This document shows, one piece after another, positions 17,401 to 55,358 of a stretch of DNA of 64,000 bases. Position 1 is the stretch's first letter, and each line of letters begins with the position of its first letter. The notes under the pieces were generated by a model, which made no database searches, was not told the origin of the DNA, and saw nothing but the letters and a program-made list of their open reading frames with translations. The stretch is from Salminus brasiliensis (taxonomy: Eukaryota > Chordata > Actinopteri > Characiformes > Bryconidae): assembly GCF_030463535.1 (NCBI RefSeq), contig NC_132893.1:18088027-18152026 (forward strand). The letters run 5' to 3'. Position numbers and translations under genes: made by a program.

Positions 17401-20400
17401 CAAAAGGTTGCCTGGTCCGAGGAGTGTAAAAACGAACATGCAGCTTAAAGAACATGCTGCCAACGGCTTGGTGCCAGACACTACACTACCACCTTCAGAG
17501 GTCTCATACAGTGAGCTGTTTTGGGGACGTGGCATACCAACGGCATATTAGGCACTGTCAATAATGCATAAAACATGTTCCTGCTATTGTTTTCACTACT
17601 TTAGGAGAGCACCATTTACTGCGTGTCATGCATTCCTCACTCTTTTCCTCCTGAAAGTCATTATTGAGATAAGGGGCTGCTGATGTGCCACCTGCCCTTT
17701 AGGTTTAATCCCAGTGTTTTGATATAACAACCTCAATTGCTTTTGAGACTCACCGGGAAGGTCGTTAAGAGGGCCATAAGAGCGGTATGGTGGCTTTGAG
17801 AATCCGGCCCCGAATGTTTAAATCACTTTTCCTCACCCACATTCCTAGAAAGTACTATTCAAAGTCACTGACACAAAGAAACTCATCTCACCCATCGATG
17901 ACATCAGCGATGAACTGGCTGGCTGCCTGCGCCTGCTCTCCAGGTGGCCCCGGCCGAAATCGGGACGAGCACAGTGGAGGCAGGTCTACATTCGGAACTG
18001 AAACATGGAAGAGCAAGTCAGACTTTAGTCAGCATCAGAGATGAGTGCCTTTAAGAATGATGCATTCCAACTCACCAATATATCCTTTATCAGGAGCATC
18101 AGTAGAGGGCATCGCTAATTCCTGTTTCAAAACATGGAGTCAGTGTTTGTTGTGTTTATTTGAAGGACAGCAAGTATTGATCTGAGGAGTACAGGATGCT
18201 GCTTACTGCTTTTATGCCACAGATCACCGTAGTGTTCCCAATTTTCACCATTGCTGAACCATCAGCTGTGCTTATAGAACCTGCATATAAAGGATACATA
18301 GAGACGGTGTTCAGTTTAGATCTGATCCAGTAATTACACATCAGTAAAGAGGCAGAGGCCTTTATTTCTTCTAGGTTCAGCATCTTTGGGATAACCATAC
18401 ACCTGCACCACAATTCAATTGTACACATAAATTCATAACGGTGAGGAACTCCGAAACGGTTTACCAATATTTAACGTTGTGGGTCTGAACTCTCCCAGTT
18501 CCCTGCCATCTGGTCGGCAGTTTTCTTTCTGTGTGAAGAAAAGCATGTTTGTAACACATGAGCGTCCCTAAATCTATACCGTAATATCCAAAAGTATCCA
18601 GACAACCCTTTTTTTAATTATGTCCCCCAATTTTCTCTTCAGTTTAGTCATTCCCAATTCCACCTCTAACTATAACTTCCCCAGTCACATCACATCACAT
18701 TACATCACATGATGCTACAAGCGCTAGGAGGATGCAAGGGAGGGTGGAAAGCCATCCTACCGACCCAGAGAGAGCAAGATCAACGATGCTCTATGGGACT
18801 CCCAGCCATAGATGGCTGTGGCATAACTGGGGACTGAACCAACCAACATGTAGATGGTTAGATCAGCCAATGGCTGTGCCACTTATGAGCCCCCAGACGC
18901 ACCTAACTAGTGAATTTAGGTAGTTGAAACAACAACTCAGTTATACAATTGTGCATAATCACCACCATAAACGGCTTAAAGTTTTGCGGTAGAGCTACAA
19001 CACTAATGTAATGCATGTTCGGCACCCAAAGTCTATTACAATTGCCCTGTAGCTCCAATGCAGAACTACAGAAGCTTCAGACACAATGCCTCATGGCTCG
19101 TAGATTGTGTTTTGGGTATTATCGAATTGTGATTTTTCATGAACTACTACCATTGCTGACAGCTCAAATGCGCAGTCAGCTAGTATAATCTCAACAGGAA
19201 AGCACTGCCGATAAAGTGGCACGCTCTGCAGCAGTAATGCATAAATCTAAGGCTAAAGGGGTCAGAGGAGTATAAAGTAGGGCTGGGTGATATGGCAAAA
19301 ATACTATGTCACGATATTTAAAAACATTCTTCACGATACATGTAATCACAGGCTAAAAACCATCAGTAGTGACAGATTCTTAAAAACTACTATTCAGATA
19401 CTCTCCCGTACTGGATACAGTGATTCTTACTCAACATCTGCTGAATCTCGTCTAATTAAACCAGTCTAATGACACTGTTGGTAATGAAACCTGCAGTTGA
19501 TCAGTGTCCGTTAAGCCCTAACAATATCCTAAATATGCTTAGAAAGCATATTTTGTAAATCATAACAAAAATTCAGACCCAATGCCTCATGGCTCGTAGA
19601 TTGTGTTTTGGGTAAGGAGACAATTGTGATTTTTCATGAACTACTACCATTGCTGACAGCTCAAATGCGCAGTCAGCTAGTATAATCTCAACAGGAAAGC
19701 ACTGCCGATAAAGTGGCACGCTCTGGAGCAGTAATGCATAAATCTAAGGCTAAAGGGGTCAGAGGAGTATAAAGTAGGGCTGGGTGATATGGCAAAAATA
19801 CTATGTCACGATATTTAAAAACATTCTTCACGATACATGTAATCACAGGCTAAAAACCATCAGTAGTGACAGATTCTTAAAAACTACTATTCAGATACTC
19901 TCCCGTACTGGATACAGTGATTCTTACTCAACATCTGCTGAATCTCGTCTAATTAAACCAGTCTAATGACACTGTTGGTAATGAAACCTGCAGTTGATCA
20001 GTGTCCGTTAAGCCCTAACAATATCCTAAATATGCTTAGAAAGCATATTTTGTAAATCATAACAAAAATTCAGACCCAATGCCTCATGGCTCGTAGATTG
20101 TGTTTTGGGTAAGGAGACAATTGTGATTTTTCATGAACTACTACCATTGCTGACAGCTCAAATGCGCAGTCAGCTAGTATAATCTCAACAGGAAAGCACT
20201 GCCGATAAAGCGGCACGCTCTGGAGCAGTAATGCATGAATCTACGGCTAAAGGGGTCAATTTTATCACGATACGATAAAATATCGTAATATCGCCCAGCT
20301 CTAAGAGGAAGCCATCCCAGCATTAGACTGTGGAGCAGTGAAGCTGTTTTCTGAAGTGATCAAATCAAAAATTTCTAAATCAAAAATCAACATCTGCTGA

Positions 20401-21235
20401 ATCTCGTCTAATTAAACCAGTCTAATGACACTGTTGGTAATGAAACCTGCAGTTGATCAGTGTCCGTTAAGCCCTAACAATATCCTAAATATGCTTAGAA
20501 AGCATATTTTGTAAATCATAACAAAAATTCAGACCCAATGCCTCATGGCTCGTAGATTGTGTTTTGGGTAAGGAGACAATTGTGATTTTTCATGAACTAC
20601 TACCATAATAATAATTAATAGTAATAATAGTAATATCGCCCAGCTCTAAGAGGAAGCCTTCCCAGCATTAGACTGTGGAGCAGTGAAGCTGTTTTCTGAA
20701 GTGATCAAATCAAACATTTTGAGAAAGAGTTAGAAAGTCATCTGTGAGCCAGAATCTGGCCCTCACTAAGGCTTTTGTGACTGAATGCAATCGATTTCTC
20801 ACAGCAATGTTCCAACACTGATAGTATGAAGTCTCTCCAGAAGAGTAGAGGCTGGTACTGCAGCAAAGTATGGCCATCTCCTTAGTAATACCCACTGATA
20901 ATAGCAGTAATGCAGGGTCCTGTCCTACCAGTACCTCCTAGTTTAGAGGTAGACTTACCAGGAAGCTCCTGTGATACTCCAGTGGCTCTGCAGTCCTGCC
21001 AAAACATGCAAAAGTCGTTTAGACGGTAGCTGGCTAACCTAAACCAGGGTAAACCTGAGGGAGGTCCGGCAGCTGGACTAAGCCAGCCACATTGCCCGGA
21101 TGTCCTCCCCATGGTTATAACTGTAAGATTCCCAGCGACCGGCGTCAAAACCAGTATGTCGTTTAATGACTTTCATCACAGTGTGAACAGAGAAACCATG
21201 CCGATCTGCTGCACTTACTTGAAGCCCGCCGCCAT
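14456..21235 (-). CDS. exosc8: Exosome component 8 (RRP43), 11 coding exons
   Basis: EXOSC8 is one of six RNase PH-fold ring subunits of the nuclear and cytoplasmic RNA exosome; the metazoan ring is non-catalytic and threads RNA to DIS3/EXOSC10. Exons in transcript order: 21235-21219, 20995-20959, 18528-18465, 18280-18207, 18121-18076, 17997-17892, 16058-16013, 15917-15821, 15726-15606, 14797-14691, 14574-14456. They join in frame to 834 nt, 277 aa (human 276). Start: MAAGFK, identical to human. Key matches: [86 protein letters not shown] and CAFHKPGGSSLS. The tail [10 protein letters not shown] aligns with human KSMKPK. Introns hold several transposons and a tandem array. The gene is head to head with alg5. 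Confidence 0.96.
16105..16862. mobile_element. Degenerate Tc1-like transposon remnant
   Basis: The left end, AGTTGCAAGAAAACAAAATG followed by AAGTGAACCC, is matched by an inverted right end near 16838-16859 (TTGCTTACTTTTTCTTGCAA). The inner 700 bp has many stops but keeps the phrase order of a Tc1 transposase gene, e.g. the ACTCCTCTGGAATGTACAGC region. It lies in exosc8 intron 6. Confidence 0.6.
16935..17810. mobile_element. DNA transposon with GGGCCGG terminal inverted repeats
   Basis: The left terminus GGGCCGGATTTTCAAAAC and the right terminus, whose reverse complement reads GGGCCGGATTCTCAAAGC, are imperfect inverted repeats about 18 bp long, 876 bp apart. The interior has only short reading frames, so it is non-autonomous or decayed. 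A GGGCC start suggests PIF/Harbinger, but no clear target-site duplication was found, so the class is open. It is in exosc8 intron 6. Confidence 0.6.
18690..18893 (-). mobile_element. SINE, family B ('GGCTC..GAGTGG'), reverse orientation
   Basis: Read on the - strand this begins GGGGGCTCATAAGTGGCACA and continues through a GGACTCCCAGCCATAG-type block and a CGACCCAGAGAGAGCAAG-type block. The same order occurs in the + strand copy at 30196. It lies in exosc8 intron 2. Confidence 0.5.
19081..20714. repeat. Tandem array of a ~496-bp unit carrying a transposon end
   Basis: A marker phrase (AATGCCTCATGGCTCGTAG) recurs at 19085, 19581, 20078 and 20537, giving periods of 496, 497 and 459 bp. Units one to three are almost identical; the fourth is rearranged. 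Each of the first units holds about 200 bp of local sequence plus a partial hAT-like element starting TAGGGCTGGGTGATATGG (19278, 19774). The only matching 3' end (ATATCGCCCAGCTCTA) is at 20288-20303 and again at 20633-20648. Its flank (AGAGGAAGCC...ATCAAATC) is also duplicated at 20304-20370 and 20649-20711. The whole array is in exosc8 intron 2. Confidence 0.9.
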
Positions 21236-24312: not shown

Positions 24313-24345
<33 letters not shown>

Positions 24346-27300
24346 CACACAGTCATGCCCGAAAGTATTCATACCCCTGGCAAAGTTTGACTTAAATTTA
24401 CTTTTATTTAACCAGAAGTTATATTTTTGCCTTGAAACGACACAGGCATCTCCCAGGAGATAACACGATGATGTACAAGAGGCATCATTGTGGGAAAAAG
24501 TATTTCTCAGCTTTTATACACATTTGAACAAAAAGTGGCATGTCCAAAATTATTCATACCCTTTGAAAACTGTCACAGTATATGGGAAAATCCAAAGTTC
24601 TATACCATTCCAAATAGTCCAAGCTGTTTTAAAGCATCCTAATTACCCTGATTCATTGGGAACAGCTGTTTTAATCAACTCAACAGGAGAAAAACAGCAG
24701 CTCTCTGCAGTTGGTTTGTGGACAGTCATGGCTAAGACAAAGGAGCTCACTAAGGACCTGCGGCTGTGCATTGTGGCCGCTCACAAGTCAGGAAAGGGCT
24801 ATAAAGCCATATCAAAATGTTTTCAAGTTCCAGTGGCTACAGTGCAAAGTATTATTAAAAAATACAAGAAGTTCCGCACTGTGGAAAATCTCAGAAGATG
24901 TGGTCGGAAGCCAAAAGTGACACCTGTGCTGGCCAGGAGAATAGTGAGAGAGGTGAAGAAAAATCCAAGGATCACCACCAAGGCCATCCTGGTGAATCTG
25001 GACTCTGCTGGTGGCGACATCTCAAGGCAGACAGTTCAACAGACACTGCACACTGCTGGGTTCCACGGACGCAGGCCAAGGAGGACACCACTTCTCCAGA
25101 AAAGGCACACAAAAGCCCGCTTGACCTTTGCAAATGCTCATCTGGACAAAGAAGAAGACTTCTGGTGTTCTGTTTTATGGTCAGATGAAACACAAATTGA
25201 ATTGTTTGGCCACAATGATGTGTGCACCATTTGGCGTGAAAAAGGAGAAGCCTTCAACCCTAAGAACACCATCCCCACTGTCAAACATGGTGGTGGGAAC
25301 CTAATGTTTTGGGGGTGTTTTTCAGCCAATGGACCAGGGAACTTGATCGCAGTAAATGGCACCATGAAAAAAGAGCAATACATCAAGATTCTCAACAACA
25401 TCAGGCAGTCTGCAGAGAAACTTGGCCTTGGGAACCAGTGGACATTTCAGCACGACAACGACCCAAAACACACAGCCAAAGTGGTGAAGAAATGGTTAGC
25501 AGACAAAAACATTAATGTTTTGCAGTGGCCCAGCCAGAGTCCTGACTTGAATCCAATTGAGAATCTGTGGAGGTAGCTAAAGATCAGGGTGATGGCAAGG
25601 AGACCCTCGAACCTCAAAGAGTTGGAGCTCATCACTAAAGATGAATGGGCAAAAATACCAGTGGAGACATGCAAAAAGCTGGTCAGCAATTACAGGAAGC
25701 GTTTGATTGCTGTAATAGCCAATAAAGGCTTTTCTATTAATTATTGAGAAGGGTATGAATAATTTTGGACATGCCACTTTTTGTTCAAATGTGTATAAAA
25801 GCTGAGAAATATTTTTTCCCACAATGATGCCTCTTGTACATCATCGTGTTATCTCCTGGGAGATGCCTGTGTCATTTCCAGGCAAAAATATAATTTCTGG
25901 TTAAATAAAAGTAAATTTAAGTCAAACTTTGACAGGGGTATGAATACTTTCGGGCATGACTGTATATATTTAATTTACAGCTTTGAAGTGTGTGGGGGGG
26001 AAATAAAAATGAATAAAAAGCAATGGTGATACCAGGTTTTTGCCTGACGGCATCCGTGTGTAGAACTGCTGTGATTAATGCTTTCTGTGAATGGATCGTT
26101 TACACTCAAAGTGGGGTATGATTACACAGGTTGCCTTAGGATACACAAGAAAGTACGGAGCAGACAAAGTGAGAGTACTCACACTACAGAAGAACCGTGG
26201 CAAAGGGGGCGCTGTGCGGATGGTGAGTCATAACCCCATACATTGCATTGTTGTTATAAAGGACTTGGAATCACAAAGTTCTCCAGTGTGTTTTAGCCTA
26301 GCAAGATCTGTAACAGCTGGTGGCTGCCCTCTCTTGTGTTCCTCTTCTCAGGGCACTCTAAGCTCTCGCGGCCGTCTCATTCTGATGGCAGATGCAGACG
26401 GAGCCACAAAGTTCGCAGATATTGAGAAGGTGGAGGCTGGCTTGCAGAATGTCAACCCTAAGCCGGTGGGACATAGTTTCTTCTACTCTTAAATAGACAG
26501 TAGCGTGTTGAGTTTCTCAGAAGCGTGAAGTGGCTGTGTTGAGGACATGTGGCAGTAAATTCCTCGTTGCTGTTTTGATGTTCTGCCACCCGGAGGTGTA
26601 AACAAGGGTCAGTCTATCAAAGCCAAGTATGCCTAATCAACTGTGAACGCCTTCTCATGTGTCTGTACAGGAGAACATGGCTATCTCCTGCGGCTCCAGG
26701 GCTCATCTGGAAAAAGAATCTGTGGCTCAGGTATGGACAGTTAGTCCTTATGGCTAGGATGCATCAAAATCTTCTTGTTTAAGGCCATCATCTAAGATGA
26801 GACAGAGTTTTGCTCAGTGTGGTTCATAACGCTGCTGTCTGTTGCCATTGACAGCGGTCCATGTTCCGAACCTTTCTGATGTACGGGTTCCACTTCCTGG
26901 TTTGGTTCTTCTGTGTGAAGGGTATCAAGGATACGCAGTGTGGGTTCAAGCTCTTCACTCGTGAGGCAGCATTAAGGACCTTCAGCAGTCTGCATGTGGA
27001 GCGCTGGTAAGCAGCCCTCTCTGATCAGAGCACTCCATCACATTACAGCATAGTGATGACACGTACCATGATCCGTGCCTGGACTAGGGTCAATTTTCAT
27101 ACACTTAAAATAACCATTTAAAAGGTCTGAAACCGTGTGTTTTTAATACATACATGGCAGTACAGAAGTCATTTCAGACTACATTTTGTATCTGATGAGG
27201 GTAAACATGCAGATCTGGTTTCCTCAAATTTGGTCAAGGGGTGGAATGTGCTTTTGGAGATTTAGGGGCTTGTTTGGAATGTGTTTTTCGTTGCTTTTTT

Positions 27301-29601: not shown

Positions 29602-31581
29602 AAACATTTAATATAATTTATGGTGTTTTAGTTTTTTTTATATGCATTTAAATAGTTATTCATGAGCTAGGTCAGATGGATTATATAAGTAGTTATTCAG
29701 TCCTGTGGACCCACTGCCCAGCCATACACAAATGCTAAATAATGTCCTGTTAATATTAGTGCGATCTATAAAAAGTTGAGCCACTGAGCAAGCATATTTT
29801 AAAGCTACTAATACTAACTACTTACTAATACTTTATTGATATTTTTTTAAATTATTATTATTATTATTTTTTTATTTGTATTTTTTTTTTTGTAATGCTG
29901 TAATGTCACATGGACAGCTATATTACACTGGTATCATGATCCCAGTATTTAATGTTAAACATGGATACATAATTATCTACTCATACAAATATTTGTGATG
30001 AAGAAGACATTGACAGACGTGTCAGTTCGCTAGCAAAATAACAGCAGACCGTCTCATCTCACCAGTAACCACTGTGTGTAAAACCAATCTATTCAGATCC
30101 AGGCTTTTAAGACCCTCGCTGTAGGCATGTTGACATGTATGAAAGTTATGGAACCTCCTACAGTGAGGGAGGATTTCTTAGTAAAACTGGATTATGGGCT
30201 CCCGAGTGGCACAGCCATCTAAGCTCTGATCACCAAAAAGCCACAAACCACAAGTCACAGACAGGACAATTTTGCTCTCTGTGACAGAACTGGCAGTTGG
30301 CACTCTCCTCTCCTCATGTCCGGTGATGCTGTGTTAGTGGCAGACCGAAAAGATGCAGAGGAAGCACATGCTACCCCTCAGCATGTGATAGACGATAGAG
30401 TTCTGTCTATTCACATCCCATGTCTACACTGAGGGGAAATACAAAAAAAAAAAGTTAGCACAGGTAAATCTAGATTGTCCATTACGTACCTGTTCTATCA
30501 GACAGATTGGACATTGTAAAGTGTTTAGTTCCTGACAGTTTACATCCTTAAAGTGGAGAGCAAGCATTGCACTGAACACTCCTGTGTGTAAGAATGGGCC
30601 TGGTCATGCAGGGCAGGGGGTCTCCAGGACCAGACATATTTAAATGACTACAGTGTGAAAACATTCATGGGGCTCCTAATGGCTCGAGTAGCCAAAAAGG
30701 AAAAGGACCCTGGGAACCACTGGCCCTTTAGACCATGCTAAAGTGCTCAATGGCTGGGTGCAAGTTCACAGTGAGGAATGCAGTCCACTCAGCACCAGCC
30801 TGCTCTGCACCCTGGGGAGCAGCATCCTGCTTGGCCTCATTTTTACCATTTATCATTCACTCTCATCCAACCCATCTCACCCTGAAATCTAGCACCATTA
30901 TTATATTACCCTGTAAATGCATCACTGACCAAAGCAAAGGCCTAAACGCACCTAAATGTCAACTGTCAGCTTTACTGTGACCTCCTCCCCCTCCTCCTCC
31001 TCCTCCTCCTGAGTAATGAGGCCGGTGCACCTTGACGGACGGCCGTTACTGTTGACCGTCCCTGTATCGTTTTTCCACCTCCTCTGTGTTGGAAACGGCT
31101 GAGCAGCATGTCATGCCCGCTCTCATTATTGGGAGCTCTGCTTGGTTCCCCTGCAGTTGCTGTAAACTGTGAAAATGTCAAACTTCTAGACTCTCTGTCG
31201 CCATCCAGGCTTGCGTCATTAACTAGACTGGTCACCGCGCGCACGCAAAATCGAAACGTATCCATCCGCAATGACGAGCGCTCCGGAAATAGATCCATCG
31301 ATTAAAAAACTTTTGGCATGCCGCCAAGTTGTGTTTTTTTTATTATTATTATTACATTATTACTATTAATATTATTACTATTCCCTACTGTAAACGACTG
31401 AGATGCGGTGGCTGTGTAGGAAGGGGAATGTGAAACAACACAACCGCTGCATGCGATAAGAGTCGGGATATGATAGCTAGTCCCGTTATATTCGATTACC
31501 TGAACGGGGTCTCAGTGTGTGAGGACACAAAGCGGTCCCGTAACAGAGGGTCGCATAGAAACGGGCTGGTAGGCGAGACTT
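29602..31581. other. Intergenic DNA between alg5 and smad9
   Basis: No gene is seen. The first kilobase is AT-rich. A SINE-like copy occupies about 30196-30451. From about 31000 the sequence turns CpG-rich, with a (CTC)n run at 30984-31010, which may mark distal smad9 promoter DNA. Confidence 0.5.
30196..30451 (+). mobile_element. SINE, family B, with A-rich tail
   Basis: It begins GGGCTCCCGAGTGGCACAGC, a tRNA-derived SINE head common in fish, and continues through a GCAGACCGAAAAGATGCAG-like body. It ends in a poly(A) tract at about 30441-30452. Related copies are at 18690 (reverse) and 36657. Confidence 0.55.
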
Positions 31582-31721
31582 GCAAATCCAGGTCCATAGA
31601 GTAAAGATCCACCTCCGGGGTTTTGTTCCAACTGCCTGGGCGGCTCTGCTGCAGCAGAGCCGCCCAGGCAGTTGGAACAAAACCCCGGAGGTGGATCTTT
31701 ACTCTATGGACCTGGATTTGC
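31582..31721. repeat. Perfect 140-bp palindrome, 70-bp arms, no spacer
   Basis: Every base from 31582 to 31651 pairs with its mirror position from 31652 to 31721, with the centre inside CTGCTG|CAGCAG-type sequence at 31651/31652. Pairing fails immediately outside (31581/31722). The arms are GC-rich and unique in the window, and no target-site duplication flanks the palindrome. It may be a true hairpin locus or a fold-back assembly error. Confidence 0.97.
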
Positions 31722-32085
31722 CACGTTTGGCAGGTGTAGGTTAGCCGAGCCCTGTTGTTTCTTAACTTTTACATATTTTCATACACTTAAAAAAAAAAAG
31801 TAGTAAGATATAATATGATAATATTATTATTAAACATCCTATATACACACACACACGCGCGCGCACGGGGATGAGTCCAGCGTGTGTCAGGCGCGCTGGG
31901 AGAGTTCCAGCGCTGCGGATGAATCGTGCACGAAGGCACTGAGGCTCCAGTCAGGCTGACGCCGGGCGCTGCTGCTGCCGTGGAGTCCAAACACGCGCTA
32001 CACCTCCAATCAGAGCGAGGCTGGGGAGGCCAGACCGAAAACACACAGCGCGGAGAAGTTCCTCAAAACAGCAAGGTGAAGGAAG
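31722..32085 (+). promoter_or_regulatory. smad9: Likely smad9 promoter and non-coding first exon
   Basis: The interval is CpG-rich with GCGC runs (about 31857-31864, 31890-31895). A GGAAG|GTAAG splice donor at 32085/32086 ends a plausible untranslated exon. The matching acceptor (long T-run, then CAG) is at 34311-34312, opening the exon with the smad9 ATG. The exon start is unknown. Just downstream are (AC)n at 32107-32130 and (GT)n at 32531-32558. Confidence 0.45.
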
Positions 32086-32527
32086 GTAAGAAACACTGCG
32101 CGCGCATACACACACACACACACACACACACCTCTCAACTAAGGTACTGCGAGTTATTTTAATAGCACACCCTGAAGAAGTCAGTTTGAGCCGAATATGT
32201 GTCTGTATAACCGTGTGGGACGACAAGTGCGCTCGTATAAGTGACATAGAAGTAGATAGCTTGTTTTTCCGCCTTTTCCGTCCTTTCTCATGCCTGCTGA
32301 ACTTGTTGCTTCGTGCATCCACTCTCCAGAGGAGGCGTGGTGGGCACTGACATTGTTTTCCCAGCCCCTGAGCGGAGACGATGCTGCAGTCCGAGCTAAC
32401 TACACCTACTCTGGAGAGTTTAGCTAGCTACCTACTATAGTGTACCTATTTAACCTCACCTCCAACGTTTCCCCTCTTTTTTTAGGGATTAACAGCAAAG
32501 CTGAAGCCAGCTGTGTCAGTTCAGCTG

Positions 32528-32561
<34 letters not shown>

Positions 32562-33001
32562 TGAGGGGGAGCTGTGATGTGAGTGTGCATGAGGTGATTA
32601 AGCCTATCTGCGCTCTCAGACTGTGAGACGCCAGTTTCATAAGGAGCCACTGCCGGGGAGAATGGAGCTGCCTGTGTTAACCCCCTTTATTGTTTTTCTT
32701 TTCTTTCCTTTACTAACTCTATTCTTAGATTTGTATTTACGGCTAAATACCGAACAGTCGCTTATTTATCAGTTCTGGTACTGGATTTCAAACTGCACTG
32801 CACTGTTTTTCATGCTCATGCTCATTTTAAAGGAGCAGTCCCTAATATTTTGCTCATTTCAGTTGAAAGCAGTCCGAGAAACGTCTGTCCGAGTGGGACG
32901 GGGCAGCCTGTCCAAGCGGGATGGGGCAGAAACAGTGTGCTGGCGTGAACATCTCTGCAAAAGCCTAATATGTTCATCCTAAAAACATATGAGAGTGGTC
33001 T

Positions 33002-33207
33002 GGTAGGTGGTGGTGTGGTGCAATAGATAACACCACTACCTGCCAGTGAGCTACCACACCATGTGGGTGACTGGGGTTCGATTCCCGGTCTGGGTGACTG
33101 TGCTGCGCTACACCATTAAGAGTCCTTGGGCAAGACTACCTACATTGGCCCACCTCTGTAATACAAGTACCCTTGTATGTCGCTCTGGATAAAATGTAAA
33201 TGTAAAT
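33002..33207 (+). mobile_element. tRNA-derived SINE (family C)
   Basis: A tRNA-like head has an A-box-like TGGTGCAATAGATAACACC and a near-perfect B box, GGGTTCGATTCCC, at 33075-33087. The body has CCTTGGGCAAGACTACC, then the TCGCTCTGGATAA tail and a short (GTAAAT)n end typical of fish SINEs. It sits in the 5' intron of smad9. Confidence 0.8.
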
Positions 33208-34470
33208 GTTTTCGTGGCCATGTCACATCTTTACGTACTTGGGTCACATGCACAGCCTCTAAAGAAGGATCCAGCAGCGCCTTCTGGTTATCTGACCAAC
33301 CATAGTGCGGATAGTCTTCTAATAGTGCTTCTTAAAGACAAACAGGACGGCAAACTCAGTCTTCATCTGCTCATTCGCTCACTGTCAAACCAGGGTCATC
33401 CGCTCTAAAAGGAGACGCCAATGCACATTTTAAAAGTACTCTTCTGCTTACTTAATGCAATGCACGTTTTCACCAGAGAGGTCTCTAAATCCCCAAAACT
33501 TACAGACTGTGGCTTTAAAGGAATGCTTCACCAAGTAGACGTCTGACTAATACACTTTGGTGTCTGGAGTTTGCTTTTTTCGATTTACCCTGGAGCTTCT
33601 AGCATAAAAAATCTTTTGGGTGATATTGACTTCCATTACTTGTTAGCTTAATTACCTTCGTAGTTTCTTTACCAAACTAAAGAAGCAAACTTTAAACACT
33701 GAATGTCTAAAGTTTATTAATACTTATTTAGTAATAAGGAAAAACGTGTAGGTTAGAATTTTTATTTAAACTATTCCTTTAAACTTTAAATATTTAAGTG
33801 GTTCACTGACTGAGGAGCTGAGTCAGGTGTGTGAGTAGAGAAAGCCCAGAAATATGATTCTTTTCAAATCATGCAGAATTTACAAAAAGCTTTTAATAGC
33901 TCGGCACAGTTGATGAACTCTGACTCAACTCTGATGTTCGCTCCAGCAATCTGGAGGTGTCAAGTTCAGTAAAACAAGCAGATCATCTGGATTTCTGTAG
34001 ACCAGGTCTGTTTTGATTAATGGTAGAGGTGTACGGCAGTGAGGAACTTTAGAACCTGCTGAGAGCAGAAGTCACTCAGTGATGCTGCTGAAGTCTCAGC
34101 AGTGCTCTAATGAGTGTAATGGCAGTGTAATAAAGAGTAGGGTATTGGATTCCAGCACAAAGAGATTTTCAGAAATGCTTAGGCCAGTAACCTATTGTTC
34201 CTGGAGACTGCAGTTAATATTTGAAGGGCAAACAGTGCCCGCCCTCTTTTAGTGCATTCAGTTTTGGCTTCTCCTAAGTGTCATGCTGTGTGTGTGGTTT
34301 TTTTTTTTTCAGCAAATAAAAAGAGCAACATCCAGACGGTGGGCTTTCCAAAGACAATATCCCCATCCAGGGGTTCACCGTCAAGTTCAGTTGGATCTTG
34401 GCTAAGAGGAAAGAAACTGAGTCTTTTTTTTCCTCCTCAGTAGCAGCCACTGCAGCCCAGCTTGCTCTAA

Positions 34471-40244
<5,774 letters not shown>

Positions 40245-41176: not shown

Positions 41177-41300
41177 AGCAGTAAGTAAATAAAAAATAAA
41201 ACCCACTCAATCCATTATTAACCCTCATTATTAACAATACATTAATAATGGGAGTATCAAAAAGAAATGAAATCAAGATATGTTTTAATAGCACACACTA

Positions 41301-41362
41301 GAGATGGAAAATTCAGGTCCAGAAACTCCAGCAGTTGGACCAAATCCTGAATTTTCCATCTC
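41301..41362. repeat. 17-bp perfect inverted repeat (hairpin)
   Basis: GAGATGGAAAATTCAGG (41301-41317) is the exact reverse complement of 41346-41362. GGTCC/GGACC pairing continues partly inside. It may be a tiny palindromic element or a structured 3' UTR segment. Confidence 0.85.
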
Positions 41363-42416
41363 CAGCACACACCAAAATGACCAGTGTTAGATTACTAATG
41401 TGTTGTTAACACGAAGGGTCTATTTCCTGGAAGTGGATTAAGCCTAATCCTGGACAACATTTACCTTTCAATTGGACAATTGCCATTCAGAATGATGAGG
41501 AGTCCAGGACTAGACGTGTCTAAGATTTTTTACATAATTGCTGGAGTACAAAAAAAAACCAACCAAAAAAAAAAACAAAACAATACAAACAAACACATAA
41601 TAAAATCAAATACAAATGTATTTGATAATGTAAGATCTGGGGATCTTGCCCATCCAACTTTATGTTATTCAATGGCAAAAATCATGCTAAATATAAGAAA
41701 CATTAAGTTAAGGATGAATTAAAGAGCCTTTTCCCCCCAGGAAAAACTGAGCGTCTTCCCAGCTTCGCTCTTACTCCCAACTTCCCTGACTATCAAAATA
41801 CACAAATACACTCTCAAATTCTGCACATCCTAATATTTTTCCAGCCTGAACTAACCTATGATTTTGAAGGAAAAAAAAAAAGTACTTTGAGATGAAAGGT
41901 GTGACATACTGTATGTGTAAAAATGTGCTGTGTGACATACAGACATCTTGTCAGTACGTATTTATGAACTTTAACACTTTAAATTATTCTTTTTTTGATT
42001 CTGTAATACCATTAAATAACAAAGTTGAACGCGCAAGATCTCCAAATCTTTCACATAATGCATAATAAAAAGCTTCAGTTCTTTAAAAAAAAATGCTCAT
42101 AAAATAACGCACATATGATAAACTCGCAGTGTAAAAAGTGTTCTTAGATACAGTAGATCAGCTTCTGATGATTGTCATGATAACTGCCATGGTTTATAAT
42201 GACTTGGCTGCTTTAGTTCATTCTCACATCACATCAAATCCTCCCCGACATGATAGGTTTTCCTTACAGACACTGATGTAATTCCAACTTAACGTAAGCC
42301 AGAGTCCACAATCTTCACATTTTCTTCAGCCGAATGAGCTCTTAATAAAATGCTTATAACAGCGTGGTTCTTTAAATGTCCCTGCATCATCAGTCCTGGC
42401 TACGTACAAAAAGCGG

Positions 42417-55083: not shown

Positions 55084-55358
55084 TAGGGCTGGGCGATTTG
55101 GTAAAAATACATTTTTACAATACACAATATTTAGCATGATGCACGTAATCACTATTCAGATACTCTCCCGTACTGGATACAGTGATTTCTTCAACATCTG
55201 CTGCTCTTCATCTTATTAAACCAGTCTAATTTACACAGTTTGTAATGAAACTTGCAGTTGATCAGTGTTTATTAAGCACTACCAATATCCTCAATATGCT
55301 TAGAAAAGCTTATCGTATTGTTTAATACAATGAAATATAGTCCTATTGCCTAGCTCTA
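55084..55358 (+). mobile_element. hAT-like MITE with 8-bp target-site duplication
   Basis: The left terminus TAGGGCTGGGCGATTTGG and the right terminus (reverse complement TAGAGCTAGGCAATAGG) are inverted repeats. Flanks GGCTGAAG (55076-55083) and GGCTGTAG (55359-55366) match at 7 of 8 bases, the hAT signature. The inner sequence (CAGATACTCTCCCGTACTGG etc.) is the same family as the partial elements tandemly repeated in exosc8 at 19278-20303. It is a solo, non-autonomous copy. Confidence 0.8.

What the first reader, a model, noticed from the sequence alone, without database searches (positions are those of the whole stretch)
31582..31721. Perfect 140-bp palindrome without spacer upstream of smad9
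Seen directly: 70 bp are followed immediately by their exact reverse complement, with zero mismatches and no loop. Such structures are unstable in replication and rare in assemblies. It is either a very recent fold-back inversion, a locus able to make a perfect hairpin RNA if transcribed, or an assembly/library artefact such as a read turning back on itself. It lies at the CpG-rich 5' side of smad9.
Basis: partly seen in the sequence, partly recalled or inferred. Interest (0 to 1): 0.75.

Follow-up and report, generated by a model that had tools for sequence, protein, structure and literature searches.

The report
Old transposon hairpins kept perfectly palindromic
The 140-base mirror-image sequence near a fish smad9 gene looks like an old, dead mini-transposon whose two halves were copied onto each other long after it landed, and dozens of its relatives in the same genome show the same thing.

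Summary
The palindrome is real in the assembly: 31582-31721, arms 70+70, no loop, no mismatch. It is not a one-off fold-back. It is one copy of a dispersed, non-coding, hAT-type hairpin MITE family in this 1.07-Gb genome (TIR CANNGGTGGCAAATCC, 8-bp target-site duplications). Many copies are near-perfect palindromes although the loci differ from each other. A 24-base piece of this arm, at up to 2 mismatches, was found exactly twice in the genome, in its own two arms; the 2 other loci answered gave the same. In 84 intact-centre arm pairs, inner-30 mismatches are 0 (55 pairs), 1 (2) or 4-23 (27), nothing between. Target-site duplications are similarly decayed in both classes, so perfect arms do not mean young insertions. 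Best reading: the arms are copied onto each other after insertion, probably by template switching in a replication hairpin (quasi-palindrome correction), often enough to outrun mutation. The mechanism is known from yeast; its scale in a vertebrate transposon family looks new. An assembly artefact is not excluded (about 8%): no reads or sister species were available.

The parts
31582..31651 (+). left arm of the palindrome (70 nt)
   Evidence: a 24-nt piece of it was found only in the two arms genome-wide at up to 2 mismatches
31652..31721 (-). right arm, exact reverse complement of the left
31648..31655 (.). centre GCTGCAGC, the zero-spacer form of the family centre; other loci carry GCTGCAGC-NNN-GCTGCAGC
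31720..31729 (-). outer end of the right terminal inverted repeat, GCCACGTTTG (family form GCCACCNNTG), mostly outside the perfect tract
31572..31583 (+). decayed left terminal inverted repeat end (GGCGAGACTTGC), unlike the right end
   Evidence: inference
31564..31571 (+). candidate decayed target-site duplication GGCTGGTA
   Evidence: 6 of 8 match with shifts -2/-1; 7.7% of re-paired controls do as well; weak
31729..31736 (+). partner of the candidate target-site duplication, GGCAGGTG
   Evidence: weak
41299..41364 (.). second, internally deleted 66-bp relative with another TIR type (TAGAGATGGAAAATTCAGG...CCATCTCCA) between perfect 8-bp repeats GCACACAC (41291-41298 and 41365-41372)
   Evidence: read; found through weak matches
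34471..34941 (+). frame with the smad9 MH1 domain, the neighbouring gene (context only)

Best explanation
The palindrome is an old copy of a non-autonomous hAT-type hairpin MITE (about 150-170 bp, two mirror-image arms around a GCTGCAGC centre). After insertion its arms were made identical by copying one arm onto the other. Most likely route: during replication the single-stranded arms fold into a hairpin, the nascent 3' end switches to the other arm (or folds back on its own copy), copies it outwards from the tip, and returns to its template near the base of the stem. At 57 of 84 intact-centre pairs the last copying was so recent relative to insertion that correction appears to keep pace with mutation. 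Shown: the family, its target-site duplications, arm identity with locus-private sequence, similar TSD decay in perfect and imperfect copies. Inferred: template switching as the route, and continuous rather than one-off correction.
For: Dispersed family: 40 scored places of 373 candidates, each listed on both strands. 8-bp TSDs: at least 6 of 8 identical at the unshifted predicted ends in 10 of 33 homogenised and 12 of 46 non-homogenised pairs, re-paired controls 0.8% and 0.4%. Private arm sequence: 3 of 3 answered private patterns hit only the two arms of their own locus at up to 2 mismatches. Rare substitutions (in at most 3% of other arms): homogenised pairs 47 in both arms vs 22 in one; non-homogenised 11 vs 217. 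The partner arm is the nearest of all arms for 91 of 102 homogenised arms (2 ties) and 2 of 80 non-homogenised arms. Inner 30 positions: 55 pairs with 0 mismatches, 2 with 1, 27 with 4-23; mean age of the last correction at most 1% of insertion age under a constant rate. An insertion (L037, L042, L058, L082) or a deletion (L170) present once in each arm and in no other held locus. Nine loci have an exact inner run (361 positions, exact by definition of the run) but outer arms only 69.7% alike (198 positions).
Against: No ancestral imperfect state or sister species was seen, so the direction is inferred. Sets A and B are enriched for intact cores; in the outer-TIR sample only 2 of 18 intact-centre pairs have an exact inner run of 25 or more. 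For the window locus no single base change is rare (3% or less) by itself, its nearest arms (L067) are 94% alike over 50 positions, and its TSD is weak. An artefact that overwrites one arm in the assembly would give the same private identity.
Confidence: 0.72

Rival explanations
1. Arm-to-arm copying by recombination: gene conversion between arms, or cruciform extrusion, cleavage and repair of hairpin-capped ends, instead of polymerase template switching.
For: Gives the same identity with private sequence; inner positions are more perfect than outer ones (1529 of 1530 at consensus 40-69 against 1168 of 1217 at 10-39), which fits cruciforms too. Several loci have changed or missing centres.
Against: Arms of about 35-80 bp are short for homologous gene conversion (general knowledge). 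Arm homogenisation of short inverted repeats is what has been reported for template switching (passages of PMC8604942; abstract of PMC5677150).
Confidence: 0.12
2. Assembly, library or polishing artefact: the true loci are quasi-palindromes and one arm has been overwritten by the other in the assembly.
For: Explains the many zero-mismatch pairs (55 of 84) and would also produce private identity.
Against: The same assembly keeps 27 of 84 pairs of the same family with diverged arms. Isolated interior mismatches between perfect stretches occur, e.g. L007, L033, L051, L084. Tracts stop at different points. Different DNA lies outside the tracts.
Confidence: 0.08
3. The perfect copies are simply young insertions of a family whose source is a perfect palindrome.
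For: Three of 33 homogenised pairs have perfect 8-bp TSDs; the family plan is itself palindromic; nearest arms to the window arm are 94% alike over 50 positions.
Against: 3 of 46 imperfect pairs also have perfect TSDs and the two TSD distributions are alike. Nearest other locus to a homogenised locus: median 0.891, maximum 0.943. Best-scoring other place for this palindrome: 86% over its full length, shorter pieces up to 89%. Step loci are exact inside and decayed outside.
Confidence: 0.05
4. Selection keeps the hairpins because their RNA or DNA structure works, for example as microRNA-like precursors.
For: Very stable fold; sub-threshold matches to microRNA families.
Against: Dozens of dispersed loci with different sequences; Rfam scores below gathering on both strands; no relaxed positions in the inner arm.
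Confidence: 0.03

Closest known systems
hAT-type MITEs (non-autonomous hAT elements)
   Same: Short, non-coding, dispersed, terminal inverted repeats, 8-bp target-site duplications, single-arm and deleted relics
   Different: Almost the whole element is arm, with mostly a 0-4 nt centre in the perfect copies, and many copies hold perfect arms despite old age; no autonomous partner was searched for
Quasi-palindrome to palindrome correction by template switching (yeast rad27 mutants and yeast evolution, PMC5677150, abstract seen; yeast genes, PMC8604942, passages seen)
   Same: Imperfect inverted repeats become perfect; arms share locus-specific changes
   Different: Tracts here are about 35-80 bp against 7-16 bp arms in the passages seen, the host is a vertebrate, and dozens of copies of one transposon family are affected, with the last correction apparently recent in all 57 restored pairs
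Template switching that creates and maintains RNA hairpins (PMC8794818, abstract and start of the introduction seen)
   Same: Perfect stems made or mended in single events
   Different: There it concerns RNA genes; here dispersed non-coding transposon relics
Y-chromosome palindromes with arm-to-arm gene conversion (recalled, no call)
   Same: Arms more alike than their age predicts
   Different: Those arms are far longer and corrected by gene conversion

Membership tests
hAT-type MITE | 8-bp target-site duplication | tested here: met
   Family: 22 of 79 pairs with at least 6 of 8 identical at unshifted ends, re-paired controls 0.4-0.8%; perfect in L006, L008, L009, L020, L028, L103. Window copy: weak, 6 of 8 with shifts
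hAT-type MITE | Terminal inverted repeats with CA...TG ends | tested here: met
   By eye: CANNGGTGGCAAATCC at left and its complement at right in many loci; decayed in the window copy. That hAT ends look so is recalled
hAT-type MITE | Short, non-coding, dispersed in many copies | tested here: met
   373 candidates; 88 exact outer-TIR hits on 29 of 103 contigs
hAT-type MITE | Mobilised by a hAT transposase encoded elsewhere | not tested
   no autonomous partner was searched for
Quasi-palindrome correction by template switching | Arms identical although the locus is old | tested here: met
Quasi-palindrome correction by template switching | Locus-private changes present in both arms | tested here: met
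Quasi-palindrome correction by template switching | Observed imperfect ancestor at the same locus | not testable with these tools
   no related fish genome held; no clear duplicated insertion among the held loci (25 best pairs listed)
Quasi-palindrome correction by template switching | Dependence on DNA replication | not testable with these tools
   needs cells
microRNA precursor | Rfam family score above gathering | tested here: not met
   12 matches listed for 30000-34000, all below gathering; best 62.4 bits against 100
One-off fold-back inversion of local DNA | Arm sequence unique to the locus apart from its own copy | tested here: not met
   the arm belongs to a dispersed family; only its private variant is unique

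The most novel reading that the evidence does not exclude
These are self-maintaining palindromes with two stable states. A copy that is still nearly perfect forms hairpins so readily that a new mutation in one arm is soon copied to, or erased by, the other, so it stays perfect while its sequence drifts; once an indel or centre loss breaks the hairpin, correction stops and the copy decays like ordinary DNA. The empty middle of the distribution (no pair with 2 or 3 inner mismatches, 57 with 0-1, 27 with 4-23) would be the mark of that switch, in a vertebrate germ line.
Probability: 0.4. Interest if true: 0.82.

Novelty: new variant of a known kind. Interest (0 to 1): 0.62.

Why it matters
If true, one transposon family gives dozens of natural, independent test sites for how often DNA hairpins form and redirect polymerases in a vertebrate germ line. 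It would mean that identity of inverted-repeat arms cannot be used to date such elements, that compensatory changes in a hairpin need not signal selection on RNA structure, and that palindromes thought to be unstable can persist by correcting themselves.

Tried and rejected
One-off fold-back inversion, rejected by the genome search. tRNA or known RNA gene: no tRNA, no Rfam match at gathering score in 30000-34000. Young-burst explanation, disfavoured by nearest neighbours and TSDs. Single correction events at uniform times, rejected: about 309 inner mismatches expected in 57 pairs, or about 85 if each pair must have fewer than 4, against 2 seen. Duplicated insertions as natural before/after pairs: none clear; L070 holds two palindromes about 1 kb apart with partly inverted, 81% alike flanks, left unexplained. 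Other palindromes as background: in 241,002 held bases the 54 non-simple palindromes with arms of at least 16 and loop up to 12 belong to this family (53 by motif, one by eye); these bases are the window plus family loci with their flanks, not a random sample. In one search the centre finder failed for L082 and L172 (tract 5), so its 34 mismatch-free tracts of 50 should be read as 32 of 48; of its 23 mismatches 7 lie within six positions of the centre and are loop letters. Its 14 transversions to 9 transitions resemble the 256 to 260 of non-homogenised pairs and say little. Three held loci contain masked letters; one of them, L132, gave no arm pair.

Full report
Observation. The sequence 31582-31721 is a perfect palindrome, 70+70 with no loop. 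The next longest in the window is a TA run of 31+31. The neighbour downstream is smad9.

It is a repeat. Searching the whole genome (1,066,335,885 bases, 103 contigs) with the 140 bases gave 373 first-look candidates, of which 40 were scored; each of the 40 places is listed on both strands, that is, palindromic in plan. The best-scoring place after the window itself is 86% alike over the full length; shorter pieces reach 89%. I fetched the other 39. A core pattern found 96 exact hits and no control hit: 60 loci, 35 with the core in both arms and 25 in one (recounted, where L070 holds two of the 35). All 60 are held; 19 were already in the first set and 41 are new. An independent pattern at the outer end of the terminal repeat found 88 hits; 9 of these lie in loci already held and the other 79 were fetched as 72 regions. 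The tool warns that counts of repeats are lower bounds.

What the family is. Read by eye, the arms run CANNGGTGGCAAATCCAGGTCCRGAAAGTAAAAATCC(A/G)C(C/T)CCAGGATTTTGTTCCAACTGCCTGGGC(A/G)GCTCTGCTGCAGC from the outside to the centre, followed by the mirror image, mostly with no loop or a 3-base loop in the perfect copies. At the ends predicted from the arms, 8-bp target-site duplications are present: at least 6 of 8 identical without shift in 10 of 33 homogenised pairs and 12 of 46 others, against 0.8% and 0.4% in re-paired controls. This is the plan of a hAT-type MITE; that 8-bp duplications and such ends point to hAT is general knowledge. No transposase partner was looked for. A 66-bp deleted relative sits in the same window at 41299-41364 between perfect GCACACAC repeats.

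The anomaly. If the arms were merely old, they should differ. I aligned the arms to a common 81-base arm and paired neighbouring plus and minus arms (114 pairs). Of 94 pairs with at least 45 common positions (L072 dropped as a repeat of L070), 51 have arm identity of at least 0.92 (mean 0.976), 40 are below 0.90 (mean 0.749) and 3 lie between. For homogenised arms the partner is the nearest of all arms in 91 of 102 cases (2 ties), for the rest in 2 of 80. Substitutions rare elsewhere are shared by both arms 47 times and confined to one arm 22 times in homogenised pairs, 11 and 217 times in the others; 25 of the 51 homogenised pairs have at least one such shared change.

The window locus itself. 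Its arm carries a run (GATCCACCTCCGGGGTTTTGTTCC) found, at up to two mismatches, exactly twice in the genome: once in each of its arms. The same held for L029 and L024; a fourth test and a negative control did not complete (81, 85). Position by position, each base change of the window arm also occurs in some other loci (11 of 290 arms for the rarest), and the nearest arms, those of L067, are 94% alike over 50 positions; it is the combination, with one extra base, that is private. Its candidate target-site duplication is weak.

Not youth. TSD decay is alike in both classes. In 9 loci with outer identity at most 0.85, an exact inner run (361 positions in all, exact by definition; at 25% divergence a run of 25 has a chance of 0.00075) sits beside outer arms only 69.7% alike over 198 positions. 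L037, L042, L058 and L082 carry an insertion, and L170 a deletion, once in each arm and in no other held locus.

Timing. Among 84 pairs with an intact centre, mismatches in the inner 30 positions are 0 in 55, 1 in 2, and 4-23 in 27 (mean 10.9). If corrections were single events at uniform times, 57 corrected pairs should hold about 309 mismatches, or about 85 even if each must have fewer than four; 2 are seen. The upper bound for the mean age of the last correction is 1.0% of the insertion age, at a constant rate. Either correction recurs faster than mutation, or something recent, biological or technical, did it all at once. In homogenised pairs identity is 1529 of 1530 at consensus 40-69, 1168 of 1217 at 10-39, 120 of 135 at 0-9, and 484 of 501 at 70-79, next to the centre where loops vary. 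The fall towards the outside is expected if copying starts near the hairpin tip.

How common. The first two sets favour intact cores. In the outer-TIR set only 2 of 18 intact-centre pairs (L129, L142) have an exact inner run of at least 25. So perfect copies are a minority of the family, perhaps one in ten of the copies with a centre.

Mechanism. [quoted passage not shown] passages of PMC8604942 describe arm homogenisation in yeast genes with arms of 7-16 bp; the abstract of PMC8794818 argues that template switching creates and maintains RNA hairpins. Passages of PMC13155455, a survey of perfect inverted repeats in 118,019 genomes, report symmetric insertions and deletions in plasmid inverted repeats. 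I found no paper describing this for a MITE family: 'MITE' with 'quasi-palindrome' gave 0 papers; MITEs with template switching, terminal inverted repeats and arms gave 2, one on fungal alkaloid loci and one on methods of transposon discovery, which I did not open; the listings show only the top 12-20 of larger sets. The library lacks most subscription journals and all preprints.

Limits. No reads, no second individual and no sister species were available, so an assembly artefact is not excluded, though the same assembly shows 27 of 84 pairs with diverged arms.

Noticed in passing
window 24340-25972: Tc1/mariner-type transposon: an open frame of 370 codons (24464-25576) with Sleeping Beauty-type HTH, HTH_Tnp_Tc3_2 and DDE_3 domains; inverted repeats of 224 bp (24340-24563 and 25749-25972) 96% alike lie around it, the left one overlapping the start of the stop-to-stop frame.
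   Followed up: partly
window 19076-20719: Tandem array with a 497-bp unit (98% matches) and further partial copies, with an 87% relative at 55151-55306.
   Followed up: no
window 41291-41372: 66-bp deleted relative of the palindrome family with a different TIR (TAGAGATGGAAAATTCAGG) and perfect 8-bp target-site duplication GCACACAC.
   Followed up: partly
L070 1220-2887: Two homogenised palindromes about 1 kb apart with partly inverted flanks 81% alike, while the printed inner arms of both look identical. Unexplained: shared homogenisation, or a younger duplication.
   Followed up: partly
L086 500-616: The right arm of a palindrome is duplicated in tandem, giving a three-arm structure, as a second round of switching might leave.
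   Followed up: no
L046, L053, L066, L076, L078, L080, L083, L090, L091: Copies with the core in one arm and no clear full partner arm beside it, as if one arm had been deleted at the centre.
   Followed up: no
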